Part shown: one piece after another, positions 10,085-20,702 of the stretch
Position numbering within the stretch: position 1 is the stretch's first letter
Layout of the letters: every line of letters begins with the position of its first letter
Assembly: GCA_011372875.1 (NCBI GenBank)
Contig: DSAD01000262.1
Coordinates: 1-35,393 of the forward strand
DNA: 35,393 bases
From: Deltaproteobacteria bacterium
Lineage (GTDB): Bacteria > Desulfobacterota > Desulfomonilia > UBA1062
Direction of reading: 5' to 3'
Translations under genes and position numbers: made by a program
Notes under the pieces: model-generated
Seen by the model: only the letters and a program-made list of their open reading frames with translations
What the model was told of the DNA's origin: nothing
Databases searched by the model: none

Positions 10085-10489
10085 TCACTGTAGCACTATT
10101 GCAAGAGGGGTCATCCATACCGTTGTTTCCTTTTTATAGGCCACACGGTAAACCATGTATGGAGCCTCCGGATTCTTGTCCCTCAGAAAAATCACCCCTG
10201 GTTCGGTTATCAACAGCTCGTCCTTTTCCTGCAGGTCATCCGTGCAAGCGGGACATATCCCCTTTGCCTTGCCCAGAAGAATCAAACTGCCGCTGCGCAT
10301 GCTGCACCTTGCCTTTACCGTAACATCTTCTCCCTCGAACCGGGCAGATACAATCTCCACAGGGTCGGACATGCCAGGGGGCATGGGCGGCAGTTTGTGC
10401 CCGCACCCAATGCAAAAAAACACCAATGCGCCGAGTGTTGCCAGGGTTTTAAATGTTCTTCTCAAGGCCCGCCAGCCTTTCCCTCGCAT
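10085..10489 (-). CDS. Small lipoprotein between argH and lysA
   Basis: This 134-residue protein has a basic N-terminus ([13 protein letters not shown]), a hydrophobic stretch (15-25) and a lipobox-like CIGC with the lipid-bearing Cys29, followed by GHKLPPMPP. The mature part contains a Cys pair (ICPACTD) that could bind metal or form a disulfide. The C-G-x-K-x-P start after the lipid Cys recalls the LptM/YifL lipoproteins that sit next to lysA/dapF in many proteobacteria, but here the protein is longer, so this link is only suggestive. It overlaps the argH end by 41 bases and lies 27 bases before lysA. No clear ribosome site precedes the ATG, so an internal start is possible. Confidence 0.65.
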   Translation of the reverse strand: MRGKGWRALRRTFKTLATLGALVFFCIGCGHKLPPMPPGMSDPVEIVSARFEGEDVTVKARCSMRSGSLILLGKAKGICPACTDDLQEKDELLITEPGVIFLRDKNPEAPYMVYRVAYKKETTVWMTPLAIVLQ

Positions 10490-11843
10490 CGGCCAGGGCT
10501 TTTCTCACATTCTCCCTTGCTGTTCCGCCGAAGCTCATACGCCGGTCAACAGACCGCTGCGGAGATATGACGGAAAGGATCCCTTCATCAAACCTGTCGG
10601 AGAAGGACCTGAACTCATCCAGGCAAAGGTCACTCAAGGCCCTGCCCTGCCTGATGAGCCACGAGACCAGTTCACCGGTAATACGATGAGCATCCCGAAA
10701 GGCAAGACCCTTTTCTGCAAGATAGTCTGCAACATCGGTTGCTGTTATGAATCCCCTGTTCAAAGAGGTATCCAGGGACTCCTTGTTCAATTCAAGGGCT
10801 CCGATCAGACCGTTCATGATCTCCAGGCACGCAAGGACCGTATCCATGCTTGAAATCACTGGATGTTTGTCTTCCTGCATATCGCGATTATACGCAAGGG
10901 GCAGAGATTTCATCATGGTCAGAAGGGCTATGAGATTCCCGTATACGCCGCCAACCTTGCCACGTACGAGCTCGGCAACATCCGGATTCTTCTTCTGGGG
11001 CATGATCGAACTGCCGGTGGTGAATGCGTCGCTCAGCTCTACAAAGGAGAACGGGCTCGAATTCCATATGATGATCTCTTCAGCCATCCTGCTCAGATGC
11101 ATCATGATGATTGAGGCATCAAATACGGCCTCGATGGCAAAATCCCGGTCACTTACAGCATCCATGGAATTTCTGCATGGCTCGTCAAAACCCAGGGCGG
11201 AAGATGTCATCTCCCGGTCAATAAGATGAGGCGTGCCTGCAAGAGCTGCACTTCCTAGAGGAGAGGTGTTGAGCCTTTTTAACGTATCGTCGATCCTGCT
11301 GTAATCCCTCAGGAACATCTCGTAATAGGCCAGCAGATGATGGGCAAAAGAAACAGGCTGTGCATGCTGAAGGTGCGTCATACCGGGCACTATGGTGTCC
11401 ACATGCCTGTCTGCCTGTTCGATCAATGTCTCCATGATCCCCTTGAGCTCCCGACGGACCTCTTTCAGGCAGCCCCGCACATACATCTTGAAATCGGTAG
11501 CCACCTGATCGTTTCGGCTGCGTGCCGTGTGAAGCTTTTTGCCCGCTTCCCCGATTTTACGGGTCAGCTCGGCCTCGATGTTCATGTGTACATCTTCAAG
11601 AGCCGGATCAAACGAGAAGACCCCCTCGTCTATATCCTTTCTGATATTGTTAAGGCCCGTGATTATGGCCTCGGCCTCTACTTCCGTGATGATTCCGGTA
11701 TTGCACAGCATCCGGGCATGGGCAACACTGCCTTCGATATCCTCCCGGTAGAGCCTCTTATCGAGAGAAACGGATTCGCTGAAGCGTTCTACACGCAAAT
11801 CCGTGTCCTGTTTGAACCTGCCTGACCATGGTTTGTCTTTCAT
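10449..11843 (-). CDS. argH: Argininosuccinate lyase
   Basis: ArgH splits argininosuccinate into arginine and fumarate, the last arginine step. The 464-residue protein belongs to the fumarase/aspartase superfamily and carries its three conserved regions: HTARSRNDQ near 105-113, TxLQxAQP at about 156-163 ([15 protein letters not shown]), and the signature [12 protein letters not shown] at 277-288 with the catalytic Ser. The opening KPWSGRF is diagnostic for ArgH. The ATG overlaps the argG stop by four bases, indicating translational coupling. Its own end overlaps the small lipoprotein gene. Confidence 0.96.
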
Positions 11844-13042
11844 GGTTCCATCTGTTTGCGCATCTTGAGCCGCAGCGCATTGAGCCGGATGAAGCCTGCA
11901 GCGTCTTTCTGGTCGTAGACCTCGTCATCTTCGAAGGTTGCAATCTGCGGATTGTAGAGCGAGGCCTGGGCCCTGCGCCCGGTGATGATACAGTTGCCCT
12001 TGTAGAGTTTCAACCTCACATCGCCTGTAACCCCTTTCTGGGACTCGTCGATGAGCTTCTGCAGGGCAATGCGTTCGGGGGCAAACCAGTATCCATTATA
12101 GATGAGCGTTGCATAACGAGGCATGAGTTCATCCCTCAAGTGCATAAGCTCCCGGTCCATGGTTATCTGCTCAATACCCCGGTGCGCCGTCCTCAGGATC
12201 GTTCCTCCGGGGGTTTCATATACACCTCTTGACTTCATCCCGACATAGCGGTTCTCCACTATATCTACCCTGCCGATGCCGTTTTTCCCGCCAAGATCGT
12301 TGAGCTTCGCCAGCAACTCGGCAGGCGACATCTCCTCGCCGTCGATGGCTGTCGCATCACCGTCTCTGAAGGAAACAACCACACTGGTCGGCTCAACAGG
12401 GGCATTTTCCGGTGAACAGGAAAGAACGAACATATCCTCTCTTGGTTCGTTCCAGAGATCCTCGAGGATCCCTCCCTCAAAACTGATATGCAGAAGGTTT
12501 CTGTCCATACTGTATGGCTTGGCCTTGGTGACCGGCACGGCAATACCATGGGCTGCTGCATAATCGATCATCTTTTCGCGCGAGGTAAGTTTCCACTCAT
12601 CCATCTTCCAAGGGGCGATCACCTCGATGGAAGGGTTCAGCGCCCAGAAGGTCAGCTCGAAGCGGACCTGATCGTTGCCTTTGCCGGTAGCACCGTGAGC
12701 GACCGCCCCGGCACCCTCACTGCGCGCTATCTCTATGAGTTTCTTCGCAATGAGCGGCCTCGCCAGCGAGGTGCCCAGAAGATATGTCCCTTCATATGCC
12801 ACATCTCCACGATATGCAGGAAACACATAATCGCGTACAAATTCCTCCCTGACATCATCGATATAAATCTTTGACGCACCGGTTTTCTTGGCCTTTTCCT
12901 CCAAACCGTCAAGCTCCTGTGCCTGACCGACATCAGCTGCATAGCAGATGACCTCGTAGCCGAATTCATCCTGCAGCCATTTAAGGATTACCGATGTATC
13001 CAGGCCACCTGAATAAGCCAACACTACCTTTTTTGCACTCAT
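11840..13042 (-). CDS. argG: Argininosuccinate synthase
   Basis: ArgG joins citrulline and aspartate using ATP. The 400-residue protein has the PP-loop YSGGLDTS at 10-17, typical of the N-type ATP pyrophosphatases, then [14 protein letters not shown], the aspartate/citrulline-binding segment, and the C-terminal block [14 protein letters not shown]. Length is normal for bacterial ArgG. GGTGAG lies before the ATG. It follows argF by 13 bases and overlaps argH by four bases. Confidence 0.97.
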
Positions 13043-13055
13043 GATCGTCTCACCT

Positions 13056-13961
13056 CTATTTTCTTAGTAAAAAGTCTAGAATGGCTTCCTGTACATAAAG
13101 TCTGTTCTGCGCCTGTTCCCATACTATGGACTGAGGCCCTTCGAGGACATCTTCGGTTACCTCTTCTCCCCTGTGAGCAGGCAAACAATGCATGAATACG
13201 GCTTCCGGTACGGCATGCTCCATGATCTTTCTTGTTACCTGGTATTCCGAAAACGCCTTTTTCCGTCCATCAGCCTCTTCTTCCTGCCCCATGCTCGCCC
13301 ATACATCTGTATTTACTGCGACGGCACCGGCCGATGCCTCCTGCGGATCTCTGCAGAGCTTGACCTTTGCCCCCTTTTGAAGAGCGCTGTTAAGTGTTTC
13401 CCTGTCAGGATCGAACCCTGAAGGGCATGCAAGCACCAGTTCGAAGCCGAACGCTGCTGATGCATTTATCCATGAGTTAGCCATGTTGTTGCCGTCACCT
13501 ATCCAGGCCACCTTCTTTCCTGCAAGATTACCGAAGCGCCGGCACAGGGTAAAGCAGTCTGCAAGCACCTGGCAGGGATGGAGAAGGTCTGTCAGGGCAT
13601 TGATCACAGGCACGCTTGCATAGTGAGCCATCTCCACGGCCCTTTCATGCCCGAAGGTCCTCATCACGATAACGTCGCAGTAGCCCGAAAAGATTCGGGC
13701 TGTATCCTTGAGCGGCTCTCCCCTTGCCATCTGTGTTCCTTCAGGCGTGAGCACGATGGGATGCCCCCCCATTCTTGTAATGCCGACCTCGAAGGATATG
13801 CGTGTCCTGGTCGAGGCCTTTTCGAAAACCAGAACCACGGATTTGCCGAAAAGGCTCTGTGACGGCAAGGCTTGTCTATTCTCTGTGGCCTTGTAAAATA
13901 TCTGCTCTATCTCATGAAAAGACAGATCTGCAATGGATAGGAAATCCCTGTTTTCCATCAT
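13056..13961 (-). CDS. argF: Ornithine carbamoyltransferase
   Basis: The enzyme transfers carbamoyl from carbamoyl phosphate to ornithine, giving citrulline. The 301-residue protein has the carbamoyl-phosphate site STRTR at 50-54 within [14 protein letters not shown], the segment [11 protein letters not shown] (the HPxQ motif), and the ornithine-loop HCLPAHRG at 258-265. These separate it from aspartate carbamoyltransferase, and from SOTCase/AOTCase variants by the ordinary HCLP loop. The ATG overlaps the argD stop by four bases; a second ATG follows at once, so the start may be one codon later. Confidence 0.95.
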
Positions 13962-15121
13962 AACCCCTTTTGTGTGAGTATGGCATCTATGGCGGCAATG
14001 GCCTCGTCGATCTCCTGCTTCGTGATCACCAGCGCAGGTGCAATCCTAAGGATGCGAGACTGTATTACGTTCAGGAGAATCCCCTTGTCCAGACCGGCAG
14101 TATTGAAAGATGAGATATCCATGTCGAATTCAATGCCGGCCATAAGCCCCCTGCCCCTGACATCCTTGATGGCCTTGTGAGCCGCCTTGAGCTGCACGAG
14201 GCAATCCATGAGGTACATCCCAATTTCCCAGGCCCTGGCAGCAATATTTTCCTCAACCATCACTTTCAACGTTGCAATACCGCAGGCCATGGCAAGCGGG
14301 TTTCCGCCAAAGGTTGACGCATGGGATCCGGGCACGAATGCCTCGGCCACATGGGGTTTCGCCACCATGGCACCCATGGGAAATCCGTTGCCGATGGCCT
14401 TTGCCAGGGTCATGATATCCGGCTCCACCATTTCGTGCATGTAGCAGAAAAGCTTACCGGTCCTTCCCATGCCTGTCTGCACCTCGTCGAGGATCATGAG
14501 GATACCGCGTTTATCGCAGAGATGGCGTACCTTTTCCAGATATCCCCTGTCAGGAATATTGATCCCGCCTTCACCCTGAATCGGCTCCAGCATAACCGCA
14601 CCTACACTGTCGTCAATGGATGCATCGATGGCCTCTATGTTTCCGTATGGGACCGCAAGAAATCCTTCAGGGATGGGATTGAACCCTTTCCTGAACTTGT
14701 CCTGGGCAGTGGCGGCAACCGTCGCCAGTGTCCTGCCATGAAAAGACCCTTCAAGCGTGATGATCCGTGAGCCCTTTTTCCCGTGATCATTCCAGTACCG
14801 TCTGGCAAGCTTGATTGCCGCCTCGTTGGCCTCTGCCCCCGAGTTGCAGAAAAATACACGGGAATCAAAGGAATGCCGCGCAATCATCCCGGCAAGCTCT
14901 TCCTGCAGGGGAATCTGGTAGAGATTTGAACAGTGAAACAGCTTTTTCGCCTGCTCTCTCAGGGCATCGACCACCTTGGGATGTGCATGGCCGAGATTGC
15001 ACACCGCAATACCGGAGACCATGTCCAGGTATTCGTGTCCATTCTCGTCCCAGACCCTGCAACCCTGACCCCTGACTATACTGATCGGCATACGGGAATA
15101 CGTTTCCATCAAGAAACTCAT
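13958..15121 (-). CDS. argD: Acetylornithine aminotransferase
   Basis: ArgD transaminates N-acetylglutamate semialdehyde with glutamate to N-acetylornithine, using pyridoxal phosphate. The 387-residue class-III aminotransferase shows NSGAEANEAAIKLAR (93-107), FHGRT, DEVQTGMGRTG (212-222) and the PLP Lys241 in TLAKAIGNGFP. Such enzymes often also serve the succinyl-diaminopimelate branch of lysine synthesis (DapC activity), which could matter here since the lysine genes follow. The ATG overlaps the argB stop by four bases. Confidence 0.94.
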   Translation of the reverse strand: MSFLMETYSRMPISIVRGQGCRVWDENGHEYLDMVSGIAVCNLGHAHPKVVDALREQAKKLFHCSNLYQIPLQEELAGMIARHSFDSRVFFCNSGAEANEAAIKLARRYWNDHGKKGSRIITLEGSFHGRTLATVAATAQDKFRKGFNPIPEGFLAVPYGNIEAIDASIDDSVGAVMLEPIQGEGGINIPDRGYLEKVRHLCDKRGILMILDEVQTGMGRTGKLFCYMHEMVEPDIMTLAKAIGNGFPMGAMVAKPHVAEAFVPGSHASTFGGNPLAMACGIATLKVMVEENIAARAWEIGMYLMDCLVQLKAAHKAIKDVRGRGLMAGIEFDMDISSFNTAGLDKGILLNVIQSRILRIAPALVITKQEIDEAIAAIDAILTQKGL

Positions 15122-16011
15122 GCCATGTTCTCCTTGACGATCTGCGTCCCGATACCTGAGTCGGTAAACAATTCCAGAAGGATCGAATACGGGGTCCGGC
15201 CGTCCAGTATGTGTGTCTTCGTTACACCGCCGTCAAGCGCCCTTATGCAGCAGTCAAGCTTCGGGATCATCCCTCCTGTGACGATACCCGAAGATATTAG
15301 GTTCGGAATATCCGCAGTATTCATGCTTGAAATGAGCTTTCCGTCATTGTCCAGGACACCTTTTTCGTCAGTAAGAATAATCAGCCGCTCCACCTTGAGC
15401 GACCTTGCGATCTCTGCTGCTACGGTATCCGCATTGATATTGTAGGTCAACCCGTCATCACCGACCCCCGAAGGTGCTATCACAGCGATAAATCCTCCCT
15501 TTTCCACCGCATCGATAATATCTGTGTTGATCTCGGTTACCTCACCGACATGACCCATATCCACATCGGTATATTTATTCCCCTGTTCATCCTTTCTTGA
15601 ATAATAGAGCTTTCGTGCCCTGATAAGTCCACCGTCTTTTCCGGACAGGCCCACAGCCCTGCCCCCATCGGTATTGATCAGGTTTACAATCTCCTTGTTG
15701 ACACCTCCTGCCAGAACCATCTCCACTACATCCATGGTCCGAGCATCCGTTACGCGCTTTCCGTCGATAAAGTTCGACTCGATCCCCATCTGATTCAGTA
15801 CAGTTGAAATCTGCGGACCACCGCCATGCACGACAACCACATGTATGCCGATATAATGAAACAGGATTACCTGTTGCGCGAAAAGCTTCTTAAGCTTAGG
15901 GTCCACCATGGCATGGCCGCCATATTTGATGACGATCTTCTTGCCTCTGAAATGCCGGATATAGGGAAGCGCCTCAACAAGGAGCTTTGCCCTGTTAATA
16001 GCATTTTCCAT
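15118..16011 (-). CDS. argB: N-acetylglutamate kinase
   Basis: ArgB phosphorylates N-acetylglutamate, the second step of arginine synthesis. From the ATG at 16011 it has 297 residues: an N-terminal helix (MENAINRAKLLVEALPYI), which in arginine-inhibited hexameric forms mediates ring assembly, then IVIKYGGHAM (26-35) with the catalytic Lys, VVVHGGGPQI, and the C-terminal GGMIPKLD. The presence of that helix suggests feedback inhibition by arginine, an inference from the family. The start at 16011 is preferred over an ATG at 16083 because AGAAGAAGG precedes it and the resulting length matches the family. It is the first gene of the 14-gene minus-strand series. Confidence 0.94.
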   Translation of the reverse strand: MENAINRAKLLVEALPYIRHFRGKKIVIKYGGHAMVDPKLKKLFAQQVILFHYIGIHVVVVHGGGPQISTVLNQMGIESNFIDGKRVTDARTMDVVEMVLAGGVNKEIVNLINTDGGRAVGLSGKDGGLIRARKLYYSRKDEQGNKYTDVDMGHVGEVTEINTDIIDAVEKGGFIAVIAPSGVGDDGLTYNINADTVAAEIARSLKVERLIILTDEKGVLDNDGKLISSMNTADIPNLISSGIVTGGMIPKLDCCIRALDGGVTKTHILDGRTPYSILLELFTDSGIGTQIVKENMA

Positions 16012-16047
16012 AACAACACCTTCTTCTTTTACTGTTTTTCCCTTTCT

Positions 16048-16078
16048 TAACACTGCATTTTCAAATATTCCAGTGTTA
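16048..16078. repeat. Inverted repeat in the argB leader
   Basis: TAACACTG (16048-16055) and CAGTGTTA (16071-16078) are perfect inverted copies, with 15 bases between them and centres 23 bases apart (about two helical turns). The element lies 37-67 bases upstream of the argB start, where an operator for the arginine operon would be expected. It could also form a weak RNA hairpin in the leader. The classical ArgR pattern (TGAAT...ATTCA) is not matched. Confidence 0.4.
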
Positions 16079-16270
16079 TTCAACCAACACGGAAAAGAGG
16101 TCTTTTACCTAAATCACACAAAAATGGAAAGGGGAATTTATGTGCCTTATGTATATAATCCTCTGCTGCTTCAGATCCACCTGTCAACATCCATTGTCCC
16201 TGAACGCAGCTTGTAAATATGAATTGTTCCGTAAAAACATGCGTCTTCTCAACAAGGAGTTATTAGATAG

Positions 16271-16730: not shown

Positions 16731-17951
16731 CTAGCCCATCCTGTCTATAATGGCCTGGCCGAACTGTGAACACTTGAGCAGGGTGGCGCCATCCATCAGA
16801 CGTTCCAGATCATAGGTCACCTGTTTGTCTCTGATGGCCTGTTCAAGTCCCTTTCTCACGAGCCCGGCGGCATCACCCCACCCGAGATGATCGAGCATCA
16901 TGGCCCCGGAAAGGATCAGCGAACCCGGATTGACCTTGTCCTGGCCGGTATACTTGGGGGCAGTGCCGTGAGTCGCCTCAAACACGGCCACGGGAATACC
17001 GATATTAGCCCCCGGCGCGATACCAAGGCCGCCAACCTGCGCTGCCAGTGCATCGGAAATGAAATCGCCGATCAGATTCGGCACGGCAAGAACATCGTAT
17101 TCGGACGGACGCAGAAGAATCTGCTGGAACATGGAATCCGCAATGCGGTCATTGACAAGGATCTTGCCTTCGGGCAGCTTGCCGTCATAGTCTTTCCACA
17201 GTTCATCCTCGGTTATGGCCACATTGGCGAACTCGTCCTTTACCAGTTCATAGCCCCAGTCACGGAATGCCCCCTCGGTGAACTTCATGATATTGCCCTT
17301 GTGTACCAGTGTAACCACCTTTTTATCGTTTGTGATTGCATACTCCATGGCCATACGCACGAGGCGCTTTGTCCCGGTGACAGATATCGGTTTTATACCG
17401 ATACCGGAATCGGTGCGGATATTTGTTTTGAGCTGTTCATTGAGAAATGTTATTACCTTGAGGGCCTCGGTACTGCCTTCGGACCATTCAATCCCTGCAT
17501 AGACATCCTCGGTGTTCTCTCTGAATACCGTGATATCGACAAGCTCAGGCCTTTTTACAGGAGAGGGTGTCCCCTGATAATATCGAACCGGCCTAACGCA
17601 GGCAAAGAGGTCCATTATCTGCCTCATTGCCACATTGAGCGATCGGATCCCTCCTCCTACCGGAGTTGTCAGCGGCCCTTTGATCCCCACAATGTATGTT
17701 CGAAATGCATCGATGGTCTCATCGGGCAGATATGACCCGATCGTGTCATAGGCCTTCTGTCCTGCAAGGACCTCTTTCCATACGATCTTTTTCGCTCCGC
17801 CGGAGGCCTTTGCTACTGCCGCGTCAAGCACCTTCTGCGACGCGCTCCAGATATCAGGACCTACGCCGTCTCCTTCAATGAACGGGATGATCGGATCATC
17901 CGGAACAACCATCTTACCATCAATGAATTCTATCTTTGTACCTTGTGCCAT
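16731..17951 (-). CDS. icd: NADP-dependent isocitrate dehydrogenase
   Basis: Icd oxidises isocitrate to 2-oxoglutarate. The 406-residue protein matches the bacterial homodimeric type: [13 protein letters not shown] (23-35), the substrate loop RSLNVAMRQ (103-111) with Ser104 at the place of the phospho-regulated Ser of E. coli, [13 protein letters not shown], and [14 protein letters not shown]. Cofactor residues point to NADP: Lys333-Tyr334 in HGTAPKYTG and Tyr380/Arg384 in TYDLERLM, as in E. coli. No AceK kinase gene is seen. The gene follows the (Re)-citrate synthase-like gene by 14 bases, so synthase and dehydrogenase would be made together, supplying 2-oxoglutarate for glutamate. Confidence 0.95.
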
Positions 17952-17965
17952 CTCACCTTCCTTAA

Positions 17966-19891
17966 CTATATTTTATCCATTCCCGTATTTCTATGCAGTT
18001 CTTCCCAGAGCAGCCTCTGATATTTCTGCAGATCTTTCGGGCTCATACGCATACCTTTGGATTCATATACGCTCTGGATCGCCTTGACCACATCCTCGAA
18101 CCGGATATCCAGACCAAGAACACCGATCATCTCATCATTGTCATCAACAATGGGTGCAGATACAGTGATAATAAGTGCACGGGTGATACGGGAAGTACAG
18201 ATACCGCTTACATGGAGCTTTCCGTCTTCAATGGTCTTGATGAACCACTCCCTGTCAGCACAGTCTTCGTTCTCCTTCATCTTGTGCTTGAACTGTCCCT
18301 TATATTCAGGCTGGGTAATGTTCTGCGTGATCTTTATCCCGTTCATGTCTGTAACATATGCAAACTGGATAAAGGGAAATTCCTTGATAAACTCTTTGAT
18401 AACCGGTTCCTGCCTTGCAGGAACCATGCTCCGGATATCAACATTATCGAGAAGCCCGTCCATGAGCCGGCTGGCATATTCCTGGGCCTCGTACTTGATG
18501 AGGTCGAATCCGGACAGAAATATCTGCGGAATAAAGCGCATGGAAAGCTTTTCGAGTTCTTCATCCGACATGGATGTTGTCCTGCCCTCTTCATATAACT
18601 TTACGACATGCTGATAGATGCGAGATATCCCTGGGTGGCGTTTGTCGATCCCGTCAGGGCCTTCCATCTTGAAGTGTCTGTTTATCCAGTGGGCGATACC
18701 TGCCTTGCCGGATTTATCGGTTACAGCGATCTCTATCGGCCTGTTAAGGATGCTCTTGGTATCGAAAATATTGTAGATCTCCTCGTTCTTGAGCAGACCG
18801 TCTGCATGAATCCCCGCCCTGGTCACGTTGAAGTTTTCCCCTACAAAGGGATAGTTGGCAGGTATTGTAAAGTTAAACTCTGCATTTACAAACTCGGCCA
18901 TCTCGGTAATGGCTTTTGTATCGATGGTCTCATCATGCCCGCGCAGCGAGAGGTACTCGAATACCATCGCCTCGAGCGGTGTATTGCCGGTGCGCTCTCC
19001 GAACCCGAATATCGCGCTGTTCGCGCCGCTGCATCCGTACAGCCACGCCGTGGTCGCATTGGCGAGCACCTTGTGAAAATCATTGTGCCCGTGCCATTCC
19101 AGAAGACTGCTGGGCACGCCCGCATCATCGATCATGGCCCTGACCAGCTTGTCAACAGCCCTCGGCAGTGCGGCTCCGGGAAAGGACACGGCATATCCCA
19201 AGGTGTCGCACAACCGTATCTTGACCCCTGTACCGGCATCCTCGCCAAGCCTCATCAATTCCCGTGCAAATGGTACGCAGAAGCCGTAGATATCGGCACG
19301 GGTAACATCTTCGAAATGGCATCTGGGAACAATCCCCATACCAAGGGCCTCTTTGACTATCCCGAGATAGCCATCCATGACCTTTCTCCGGTTTGAGCCG
19401 AGTTTCAGGAAGATATGGTAGTCGGAGACCGAGGTGAGCATTCCGGTTTCGCCTATCCCCATGTCCTTGACAAGCTTCAGGTCTTCCTTGTTGGCCCTGA
19501 TCCATGAGGTGACCTGGGGAAAGGCATATCCCTTGCCCAAGCAGCACTCTACGGCAGCCCTGTCTTTCTTTGAATAGAGGAAAAATTCACTGGCCCTGAT
19601 CAGGCCGTTGCTTCCGCCGATTCTATGGAGGAAATCATACAGGGCTTCGATCTGTTTTACACTGAACGGGGCAAGTGACTGCTGACCATCTCTAAAGGTT
19701 GTATCGGTAATAAAGATATCATCGGCAGGCTGAATAGGGATAAGCCGCATATCGAAATCGATCTTGGGGACCTCCTGATAATTGAAGATTCCCCGGTAAA
19801 AATTGCCCTGATCAACATCCATTATACCGGTTTCATAGTTCTTCCCCGGGGTATAGTAAAAAAGCCTTTTCTCGTCATCCCACCTGGCCAT
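17966..19891 (-). CDS. (Re)-citrate synthase-like DRE-TIM enzyme with C-terminal Cache-like domain
   Basis: The first ~460 of 641 residues form an HMGL-like barrel: [11 protein letters not shown] (61-71) binds the metal and starts catalysis, WHGHND (266-271) supplies metal ligands, and GFGERTGN (296-303) and AGIHADG (359-365) are the acyl-CoA/keto-acid motifs shared with isopropylmalate and homocitrate synthases. The stretch [11 protein letters not shown] and the spacing resemble the anaerobe (Re)-citrate synthases known from Clostridium kluyveri and Syntrophus, and icd next door supports citrate formation from acetyl-CoA and oxaloacetate. Residues ~500-605 look like a PDC/Cache sensor domain ([42 protein letters not shown]) but lack membrane helices; this extension is absent from the ~450-residue clostridial enzymes. 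It may bind a metabolite and control activity. Homocitrate or methylcitrate synthase are alternatives. Confidence 0.72.
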
Positions 19892-19892
19892 G

Positions 19893-20702
19893 TCATTTCT
19901 TCCTTTTGGGAATATTCGCCTCTTTCGGTATCTTCAACGGGTCCGGCGCTCCTGCTTCCCTGCGAGCCTCGATAATCTCTTCAATGGTCATCTCCCGGGG
20001 GATCTTGAGGTCCTGCCCGACATATATTGTTTTGGGGTCCTTTATCTGATCCCTGTTGGCCTTGTATACCAGGGGCCACATGAAAGAATCGTTATAGATC
20101 TCATGCCTGGCCGCTATACCTGGCAGTGTATCTCCCTTCCTGACCACATAGATCGTCGGGTAAACCTCGAAGATATCCTCCTGTGCCTGCTTTTGTATCT
20201 CATCTCTTTTCTGTGTTACCTCCTGGCCCAGTTCTTCCAGACGTTTCTGCTTTTCATCCACTGTGGCCTGAAGAACATCCTGATAGAGGACATTGAATTG
20301 ACCTGCCAAGCTGGAAAGAGAATCCTTATCGCGGCATATGGAGGCATTCTGCATTTCGAGATACACAACAAAAAGCTCAAACGATTTCTTGGGCACATAT
20401 TCAAAACCCGACATGGTTATAATCTTCCTGAGCTTTTCCGTTTCGACTTCCATGATGGAACGGAACATCGCATCTTCCTCGTCGAAATGCCGGCATGCCT
20501 TGATGAATGCCTGTCTTGCCGCCTCGATATCGCCGTCTTGCTTTGAATCGATCCCCTGTTTTATATACTCGAAGCCCTTTTCAAAAGAATCTTCCTGTGT
20601 ATCCCGGCCCATTGAAGCATCCGTCTGTATCGGAGCAGTGTTTGCGGCACAGCCCAGAAGAAATAAAACCGGGACAACCCACAGGCATATTCTCTTCATC
20701 AT
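19893..20702 (-). CDS. LysM-domain lipoprotein
   Basis: This 269-residue protein begins with a lipoprotein signal: a hydrophobic core [10 protein letters not shown] and the lipid Cys18 in LLGC. A helical, charged middle (about 40-180, with [20 protein letters not shown]) looks like TPR or coiled-coil material. A LysM domain lies at about 188-240 ([19 protein letters not shown]... YVGQDLKIP), which binds GlcNAc-containing glycans such as peptidoglycan. The C-terminus is basic (IPKRKK). The product probably sits on the outer or inner membrane facing peptidoglycan. The start overlaps the aspS stop and the stop is one base before the next gene, so it is translated within the hisS-aspS operon, an unexpected place for an envelope protein. 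Confidence 0.85.

What the first reader, a model, noticed from the sequence alone, without database searches (positions are those of the whole stretch)
17966..19891. (Re)-citrate synthase-like enzyme carrying a Cache-type sensor domain
The N-terminal ~460 residues fit anaerobe (Re)-citrate synthase, and icd follows 14 bases later. The C-terminal ~170 residues contain a PDC/Cache-like fold (FAYVTDMNG..., [25 protein letters not shown]) without any membrane helix. Cache domains normally sense ligands outside the cell as parts of receptors; here one would sit in the cytosol on a biosynthetic enzyme, perhaps as an allosteric site for glutamate, arginine, 2-oxoglutarate or acetate-like ligands.
Basis: partly seen in the sequence, partly recalled or inferred. 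Interest (0 to 1): 0.7.

Follow-up and report, generated by a model that had tools for sequence, protein, structure and literature searches.

The report
Citrate synthase with built-in sensor domain
This gene makes a Re-type citrate synthase of anaerobic bacteria that carries, fused to its end and inside the cell, a small-molecule sensor domain usually found on the outside of receptors; the fusion is old and shared by hundreds of relatives, so these bacteria probably use it to tune citrate and glutamate production directly on the enzyme.

Summary
ORF 17966-19891(-), 641 aa, is an HMGL-family acyltransferase core (residues ~1-458) followed by a Cache/PDC domain. Pfam scores the domain above its cut-off, an AlphaFold model of it has pLDDT 92.6, and its best structural match is KinD (TM 0.75). 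There is no membrane helix. This is a conserved architecture, not an oddity: all 65 aligned full-length relatives have it, as do 137 of 141 resolvable homologues in 297 Desulfobacterota genomes and members of at least four other phyla. A Cache-less form ends right after the core, so the module is separable. Citrate synthesis is supported by operons with malate dehydrogenase, aconitase and icd, by near mutual exclusion with Si-citrate synthase, and by characterised Re-enzymes in the same lineages; activity was not tested. The ligand-pocket residues (R547, W549, F550, D595) are the best conserved of the domain. Eleven Desulfovibrionales-type homologues match the published amino-acid-sensor motif in full; the window protein does not (E542, C565). 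The nearest relatives found for the domain are C-terminal Caches of soluble chemoreceptors. Best reading: an allosteric ligand-binding module, ligand unknown, amino acid (glutamate or arginine) or small carboxylate most likely. New variant of a known kind.

The parts
17966..19891 (-). 641-aa Re-citrate-synthase-type enzyme with C-terminal Cache domain (whole gene)
18518..19891 (-). catalytic core, residues 1-458, ending where Cache-less homologues stop
18887..19714 (-). HMGL-like TIM barrel, residues 60-335 (FRDGQQ at 66-71, HGHND at 267-271 invariant)
18407..18517 (-). helical linker, residues 459-495
   Evidence: AlphaFold helices 461-481 and 491-504; poorly conserved stretch
18074..18472 (-). 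Cache/PDC module as modelled, residues 474-606
18092..18406 (-). Pfam MCP-like_PDC_1 match, residues 496-600; the only PF22673 match in the whole genome
18107..18253 (-). ligand-pocket residues R547, W549, F550, (C565), S567, D595
   Evidence: mapping to PctA R126/W128/Y129/Y144/D173; counts
17969..18082 (-). variable C-terminal tail, residues 604-641
   Evidence: 68% gaps in alignment
16731..17951 (-). icd, NADP-dependent isocitrate dehydrogenase, 14 bases downstream

Best explanation
The protein is a (Re)-citrate synthase whose activity is tuned by a small molecule bound in a cytosolic C-terminal Cache domain. Oxaloacetate and acetyl-CoA are condensed in the TIM-barrel core; the product feeds aconitase and the adjacent isocitrate dehydrogenase to give 2-oxoglutarate and glutamate. 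The Cache module, joined by a helical linker, binds a carboxylate-bearing metabolite through R547/W549 with D595 opposite, and changes the conformation or the dimer of the core, as the unrelated C-terminal domain of isopropylmalate synthase does for leucine. The most likely ligand class is an amino acid of the pathway (glutamate or arginine) or a small (oxo)carboxylate. Shown: the architecture, predicted fold, absence of a membrane helix, modularity, pocket conservation and genomic context. Inferred: enzymatic activity, ligand binding, ligand identity and the direction of regulation.
For: Fold. Family-wide: all 65 aligned full-length relatives; 137 of 141 resolvable genes in 297 Desulfobacterota genomes; Spirochaetota 11 of 30, Armatimonadota 10 of 21, Nitrospirota 27 of 27, Lentisphaerae's phylum 2 of 10. 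Strict bimodality: what follows the core is either 0-17 residues or at least 143 residues matching the Cache profile. Pocket: motif positions 547/549/550/565/595 average 94% identity against 60% for the domain, 3 of 20,000 random sets as high; R/K547, W549, aromatic 550 and D595 all present in 150 of 160. Catalytic role: operons with mdh, aconitase and icd; Re and Si enzymes avoid each other (116 Re only, 120 Si only, 26 both, 35 neither; Fisher p 2e-25, not corrected for phylogeny); Re-citrate synthase reported in Thermodesulfobacteriota, S. aciditrophicus among them (PMC12016533). Core and Cache diverge together (Mantel r 0.69).
Against: No ligand or activity data exist for this protein. The window's own pocket departs at two motif positions (E542, C565). 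NCBIfam has no model above cut-off for the core. Cache-less forms exist in related bacteria, so the module is not indispensable for the reaction. I could not read the two original papers on Re-citrate synthase, so any reported inhibitors of Cache-bearing enzymes were not checked.
Confidence: 0.62

Rival explanations
1. The Cache senses a small (oxo)carboxylate such as pyruvate, 2-oxoglutarate, citrate or acetate rather than an amino acid, reporting carbon or energy state.
For: Best fold match is KinD, crystallised with pyruvate, TM 0.75; the conserved Y-x-S-x-x-T-G stretch resembles KinD's YSSRITG in the alignment; PctA's residue two after Y144 is Asp while this family has nearly invariant Ser567; citrate- and succinate-binding Caches CitA and DctB are also among the hits; the window lacks Y121 and Y144 equivalents.
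Against: D595, which contacts the amino group in amino-acid sensors (PMC9796306, PMC11237719), is present in 159 of 160, while KinD lacks it and the malate receptor SO_1056 has Asn there.
Confidence: 0.25
2. The Cache is a structural or oligomerisation module that no longer binds a ligand.
For: Cache and PAS-like folds often dimerise (established knowledge); the linker is helical; related enzymes exist without the module.
Against: The residues mapped to the pocket are among the most conserved of the domain, which a pure scaffold would not need.
Confidence: 0.12
3. The core is not a citrate synthase but another HMGL acyltransferase (homocitrate, citramalate, methylcitrate or isopropylmalate synthase).
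For: No NCBIfam equivalog passes its cut-off; the best hit is NifV homocitrate synthase at 140 bits against a cut-off of 463; the own genome also holds a Si-type citrate synthase.
Against: Operons with mdh, aconitase and icd; exclusion with Si-citrate synthase; two other HMGL genes in the genome, one beside an aconitase-family gene as expected of leuA-leuC; lineages with characterised Re-citrate synthase.
Confidence: 0.07

Closest known systems
(Re)-citrate synthase of Clostridium kluyveri and Syntrophus aciditrophicus (EC 2.3.3.3)
   Same: HMGL-type core, lineages (Syntrophaceae, Desulfovibrionaceae), coupling to aconitase and icd
   Different: The named sequences could not be fetched here; whether the characterised S. 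aciditrophicus enzyme carries the Cache is inferred from Syntrophaceae homologues L021 and L029, which do
2-isopropylmalate synthase (LeuA) and homocitrate synthase with C-terminal regulatory domains
   Same: Same catalytic superfamily and same layout: barrel, linker, C-terminal regulatory module
   Different: Their modules (LeuA dimer domain, RAM domain) are unrelated to Cache; no LeuA-dimer match in this protein
dCache_1AA amino-acid sensors (PctA, Tlp3)
   Same: Fold of the distal PDC subdomain; R, W, aromatic and D of the motif
   Different: Single domain, cytosolic, no membrane helices, on an enzyme; Y121 equivalent missing in most, Y144 equivalent missing in the window
KinD sensor domain (Bacillus subtilis)
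   Same: Closest solved fold (TM 0.75) and the YxSxxTG stretch
   Different: Double Cache outside the cell on a histidine kinase; no Asp at the D595 position
Soluble methyl-accepting chemotaxis proteins with C-terminal Cache (L218-L221, L223)
   Same: Closest non-enzyme relatives of the domain found; also C-terminal and without a membrane helix
   Different: Output is an MCP signalling domain, not an enzyme
YkuI (cytosolic EAL protein with C-terminal Cache-like domain)
   Same: Intracellular C-terminal Cache-like domain; structural hit 2bas
   Different: Signalling protein with an EAL domain

Membership tests
(Re)-citrate synthase | HMGL-like TIM barrel with conserved FRDGQQ and HxH catalytic/metal motifs | tested here: met
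   PF00682 99.7 bits; FRDGQQ 66-71, H267 and H269 invariant
(Re)-citrate synthase | genomic link to the citrate-to-2-oxoglutarate pathway | tested here: met
   icd 14 bases away; mdh, aconitase and icd in relatives
(Re)-citrate synthase | replaces Si-citrate synthase in its genome | tested here: inconclusive
   strong exclusion across the phylum, but the own genome has both
(Re)-citrate synthase | direct sequence match to a biochemically proven Re-citrate synthase | not testable with these tools
(Re)-citrate synthase | Re-face citrate formation in assay | not testable with these tools
   needs enzyme assay
Cache/PDC superfamily | profile match above curated cut-off | tested here: met
   PF22673 44.1 against 27 bits
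Cache/PDC superfamily | Cache fold including the N-terminal helix | tested here: met
   AlphaFold pLDDT 92.6, helix then strands; Foldseek hits
Cache/PDC superfamily | extracytoplasmic, between two membrane helices, on a signalling protein (typical, not fold-defining) | tested here: not met
   no membrane helix; enzyme core instead of signalling output
dCache_1AA amino-acid sensor | full motif [YFWL]x4[RK]xW[WYF]x13-17[YFW]x27-34D | tested here: not met
   window has E542 and C565; 11 of 160 relatives meet it in full, 144 meet all positions other than the first
dCache_1AA amino-acid sensor | double Cache domain | tested here: not met
   single PDC module
LeuA-type regulatory domain | LeuA dimer domain at the C-terminus | tested here: not met
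   no such Pfam match

The most novel reading that the evidence does not exclude
An intracellular branch of Cache domains, shared by soluble chemoreceptors and Re-citrate synthase, senses a cytosolic amino acid such as glutamate or arginine, and in the enzyme gates entry of carbon into 2-oxoglutarate by direct feedback: a receptor-type amino-acid sensor used as the allosteric site of a central metabolic enzyme.
Probability: 0.35. Interest if true: 0.78.

Novelty: new variant of a known kind. Interest (0 to 1): 0.6.

Why it matters
Cache domains are described as the main extracellular sensors of bacteria and as found only in signalling proteins (PMC4822843). Here the same domain sits on a citrate synthase across at least five phyla. 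It offers a simple, testable link between metabolite sensing and the first step of 2-oxoglutarate synthesis in anaerobes, and natural Cache-less versions, in one genome beside a Cache-bearing copy, serve as controls.

Tried and rejected
A fold unrelated to Cache: rejected. Chance fusion or assembly error: rejected by relatives. Membrane-anchored receptor: no helix. Regulatory domain of LeuA type: no match. In-frame TGA flagged in two Lentisphaerae-type homologues (L208, L209): only the natural stop at the match end. Two rows first counted as Cache-less (L080, L083) are cut or masked and were removed before counting label changes, as was L059, which is cut by its contig end (4 changes on the tree); the root is unreliable because the outgroup is very distant, so gain and loss cannot be told apart. 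Survey of Firmicutes and Chloroflexota was not possible because no genome handle led there. The papers of Li 2007 and Kim 2013 are not held. Literature searches joining Cache or PDC sensor with citrate or homocitrate synthase gave nothing relevant; this covers only open-licence papers.

Full report
Observation. The ORF at 17966-19891 on the minus strand encodes 641 residues. Pfam gives HMGL-like at 60-335 and MCP-like_PDC_1 at 496-600, both above their cut-offs; dCache_1 is below its own. icd begins 14 bases downstream and is a clear NADP isocitrate dehydrogenase. Hydropathy shows no membrane helix.

Fold. An alignment of 65 homologues gave a full-length AlphaFold model with mean pLDDT 87.6. 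The module alone (474-606) reached 92.6. Foldseek places the core with homocitrate and isopropylmalate synthases and the module with KinD (TM 0.75, E 3e-8), Tlp3, YkuI, CitA, DctB and PctA. A profile of the module alone also finds Tlp3, KinD, PctA and YkuI by sequence.

Distribution. Of the relatives found in GTDB species genomes, all 65 full-length ones aligned carry the module. In 297 genomes of the same phylum 142 have the core; 135 have frames long enough for the module and G142 also has it. A separate search with the module profile confirmed it directly after the core. G278 has the core at one contig end and the module on another contig; four genes truly end after the core (G016, G034, G212, G294) and one is unresolved (G170): 137 of 141. 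In other phyla both forms occur: Spirochaetota 11 with and 19 without among genes fetched, Armatimonadota 10 and 11, Nitrospirota 27 and 0, the phylum of Lentisphaerae 2 and 8. Phylum names of these samples come from the titles of the loci used as centres; that of the window's own phylum is inferred from the named relatives. Two spirochaete genomes have two copies: in G319 one with and one without the module (L128, L151); in G355 one with (L122) and a second with a frame of only 485 residues, not fetched. What follows the core is either at most 17 residues or at least 143 residues containing the module; nothing lies between, apart from genes cut by contig ends. On a core tree the label changes 4 times, with an unreliable root. 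Core and module distances correlate (Mantel r 0.69, 0 of 2000 permutations), as expected of long joint inheritance.

Function of the core. Neighbours in relatives include mdh-aconitase-icd in an elusimicrobial contig (L074), aconitase then icd in Syntrophorhabdus (L031), icd alone in Desulfovibrio, and mdh or icd next to Cache-less forms L115 and L116. aspS lies upstream in 60 of 208 loci. Within the phylum, Re-type and Si-type enzymes avoid each other: 116 genomes Re only, 120 Si only, 26 both, 35 neither (Fisher p 1.8e-25, uncorrected for relatedness; Si counted at E below 1e-50). The own genome has both; its Si-type gene falls in NCBIfam PRK14032, citrate synthase. Re-citrate synthase is reported for Thermodesulfobacteriota, including S. 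aciditrophicus (PMC12016533). No NCBIfam equivalog claims the core, so the assignment rests on context and lineage, not on a curated model.

Pocket. The PctA alignment maps Y121, R126, W128, Y129, Y144 and D173 to positions 542, 547, 549, 550, 565 and 595. These residues form the published amino-acid motif (PMC9796306; PMC11237719; see also PMC10104139). Across 160 module sequences W549 is present in all, D595 and S567 in 159, F550 in 159, R547 in 149, Y565 in 137. Eleven, all from Desulfovibrionales or an unplaced deltaproteobacterium, match the whole published motif; 144 match every position other than the first. The window has E542 and C565 and therefore fails it. Five of the six positions average 94% identity, reached by 3 of 20,000 random sets from the domain. 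An Asp at the end favours amino acids over plain carboxylates, because KinD lacks it and the malate receptor SO_1056 has Asn there; but it is also common in Cache domains generally (own knowledge), and the KinD-like YxSxxTG stretch argues the other way.

Origin of the module. In the whole own genome this is the only PF22673 match. Across the phylum the next best matches of the module profile, with far higher bit scores than any PDB receptor, are proteins with an MCP signalling domain followed by a C-terminal Cache; five of the six examined have no membrane helix. Modules from citrate synthases form one side of a branch against them (SH-aLRT 100, few columns). This points to an intracellular Cache branch, one use of which is on the enzyme. 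The scan scores a limited number of candidates per genome, so closer relatives could exist.

Mechanism. I infer that ligand binding in the module changes the core through the helical linker, as in isopropylmalate synthase (established knowledge), and that the signal is a metabolite of glutamate or central carbon metabolism. An arginine cluster (argB, D, F, G, H) lies further downstream but is separated from icd by about 650 bases, so it is only weak support for arginine.

Novelty. A citrate synthase of this type is known, Cache domains are known, and Pfam already labels the domain. No paper in the held library links them, and a 2016 survey states that Cache domains occur only with signalling outputs and are mainly extracellular, with two small intracellular families (PMC4822843). 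I rate it a new variant of a known kind: an HMGL enzyme with a receptor-type sensor in the place of a regulatory domain.

Noticed in passing
L218 1953-3269, L219 2060-3475, L220 1955-3577, L221 1080-2474, L223 1335-2618: Chemotaxis proteins without a membrane helix, with the MCP signalling domain first and a Cache domain at the very C-terminus; closest found relatives of the citrate synthase module.
   Followed up: partly
window 10449-16083: argB-argD-argF-argG-argH cluster on the same strand, followed by lysA, dapA and dapB; separated from icd by about 650 bases.
   Followed up: partly
G000:C34:9321-10406 (L084 1294-2664): The own genome also encodes a Si-type citrate synthase of the PRK14032 subfamily; 26 of 142 phylum members with the Re-type have both.
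   Followed up: partly
G319 (L128, L151) and G355 (L122 and C117:47358-48710): Genomes with two Re-type copies: G319 has one with and one without the Cache module; the second G355 copy (485-residue frame) was not fetched.
   Followed up: no
window 19893-20702: LysM-domain protein with a likely lipoprotein signal between aspS and the citrate synthase, same transcription direction; also present in the same-family locus L121.
   Followed up: no
L213 1492-2790 (Deinococcus wulumuqiensis plasmid): A Cache-less homologue (37% identity to the core) lies divergently next to a gene annotated citrate/2-methylcitrate synthase.
   Followed up: no
G000:C142:5618-6808 (L215, L216): Only short aconitase-family genes were found in the genome, one beside the leuA-like gene on C2; which one is the aconitase is open.
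   Followed up: no
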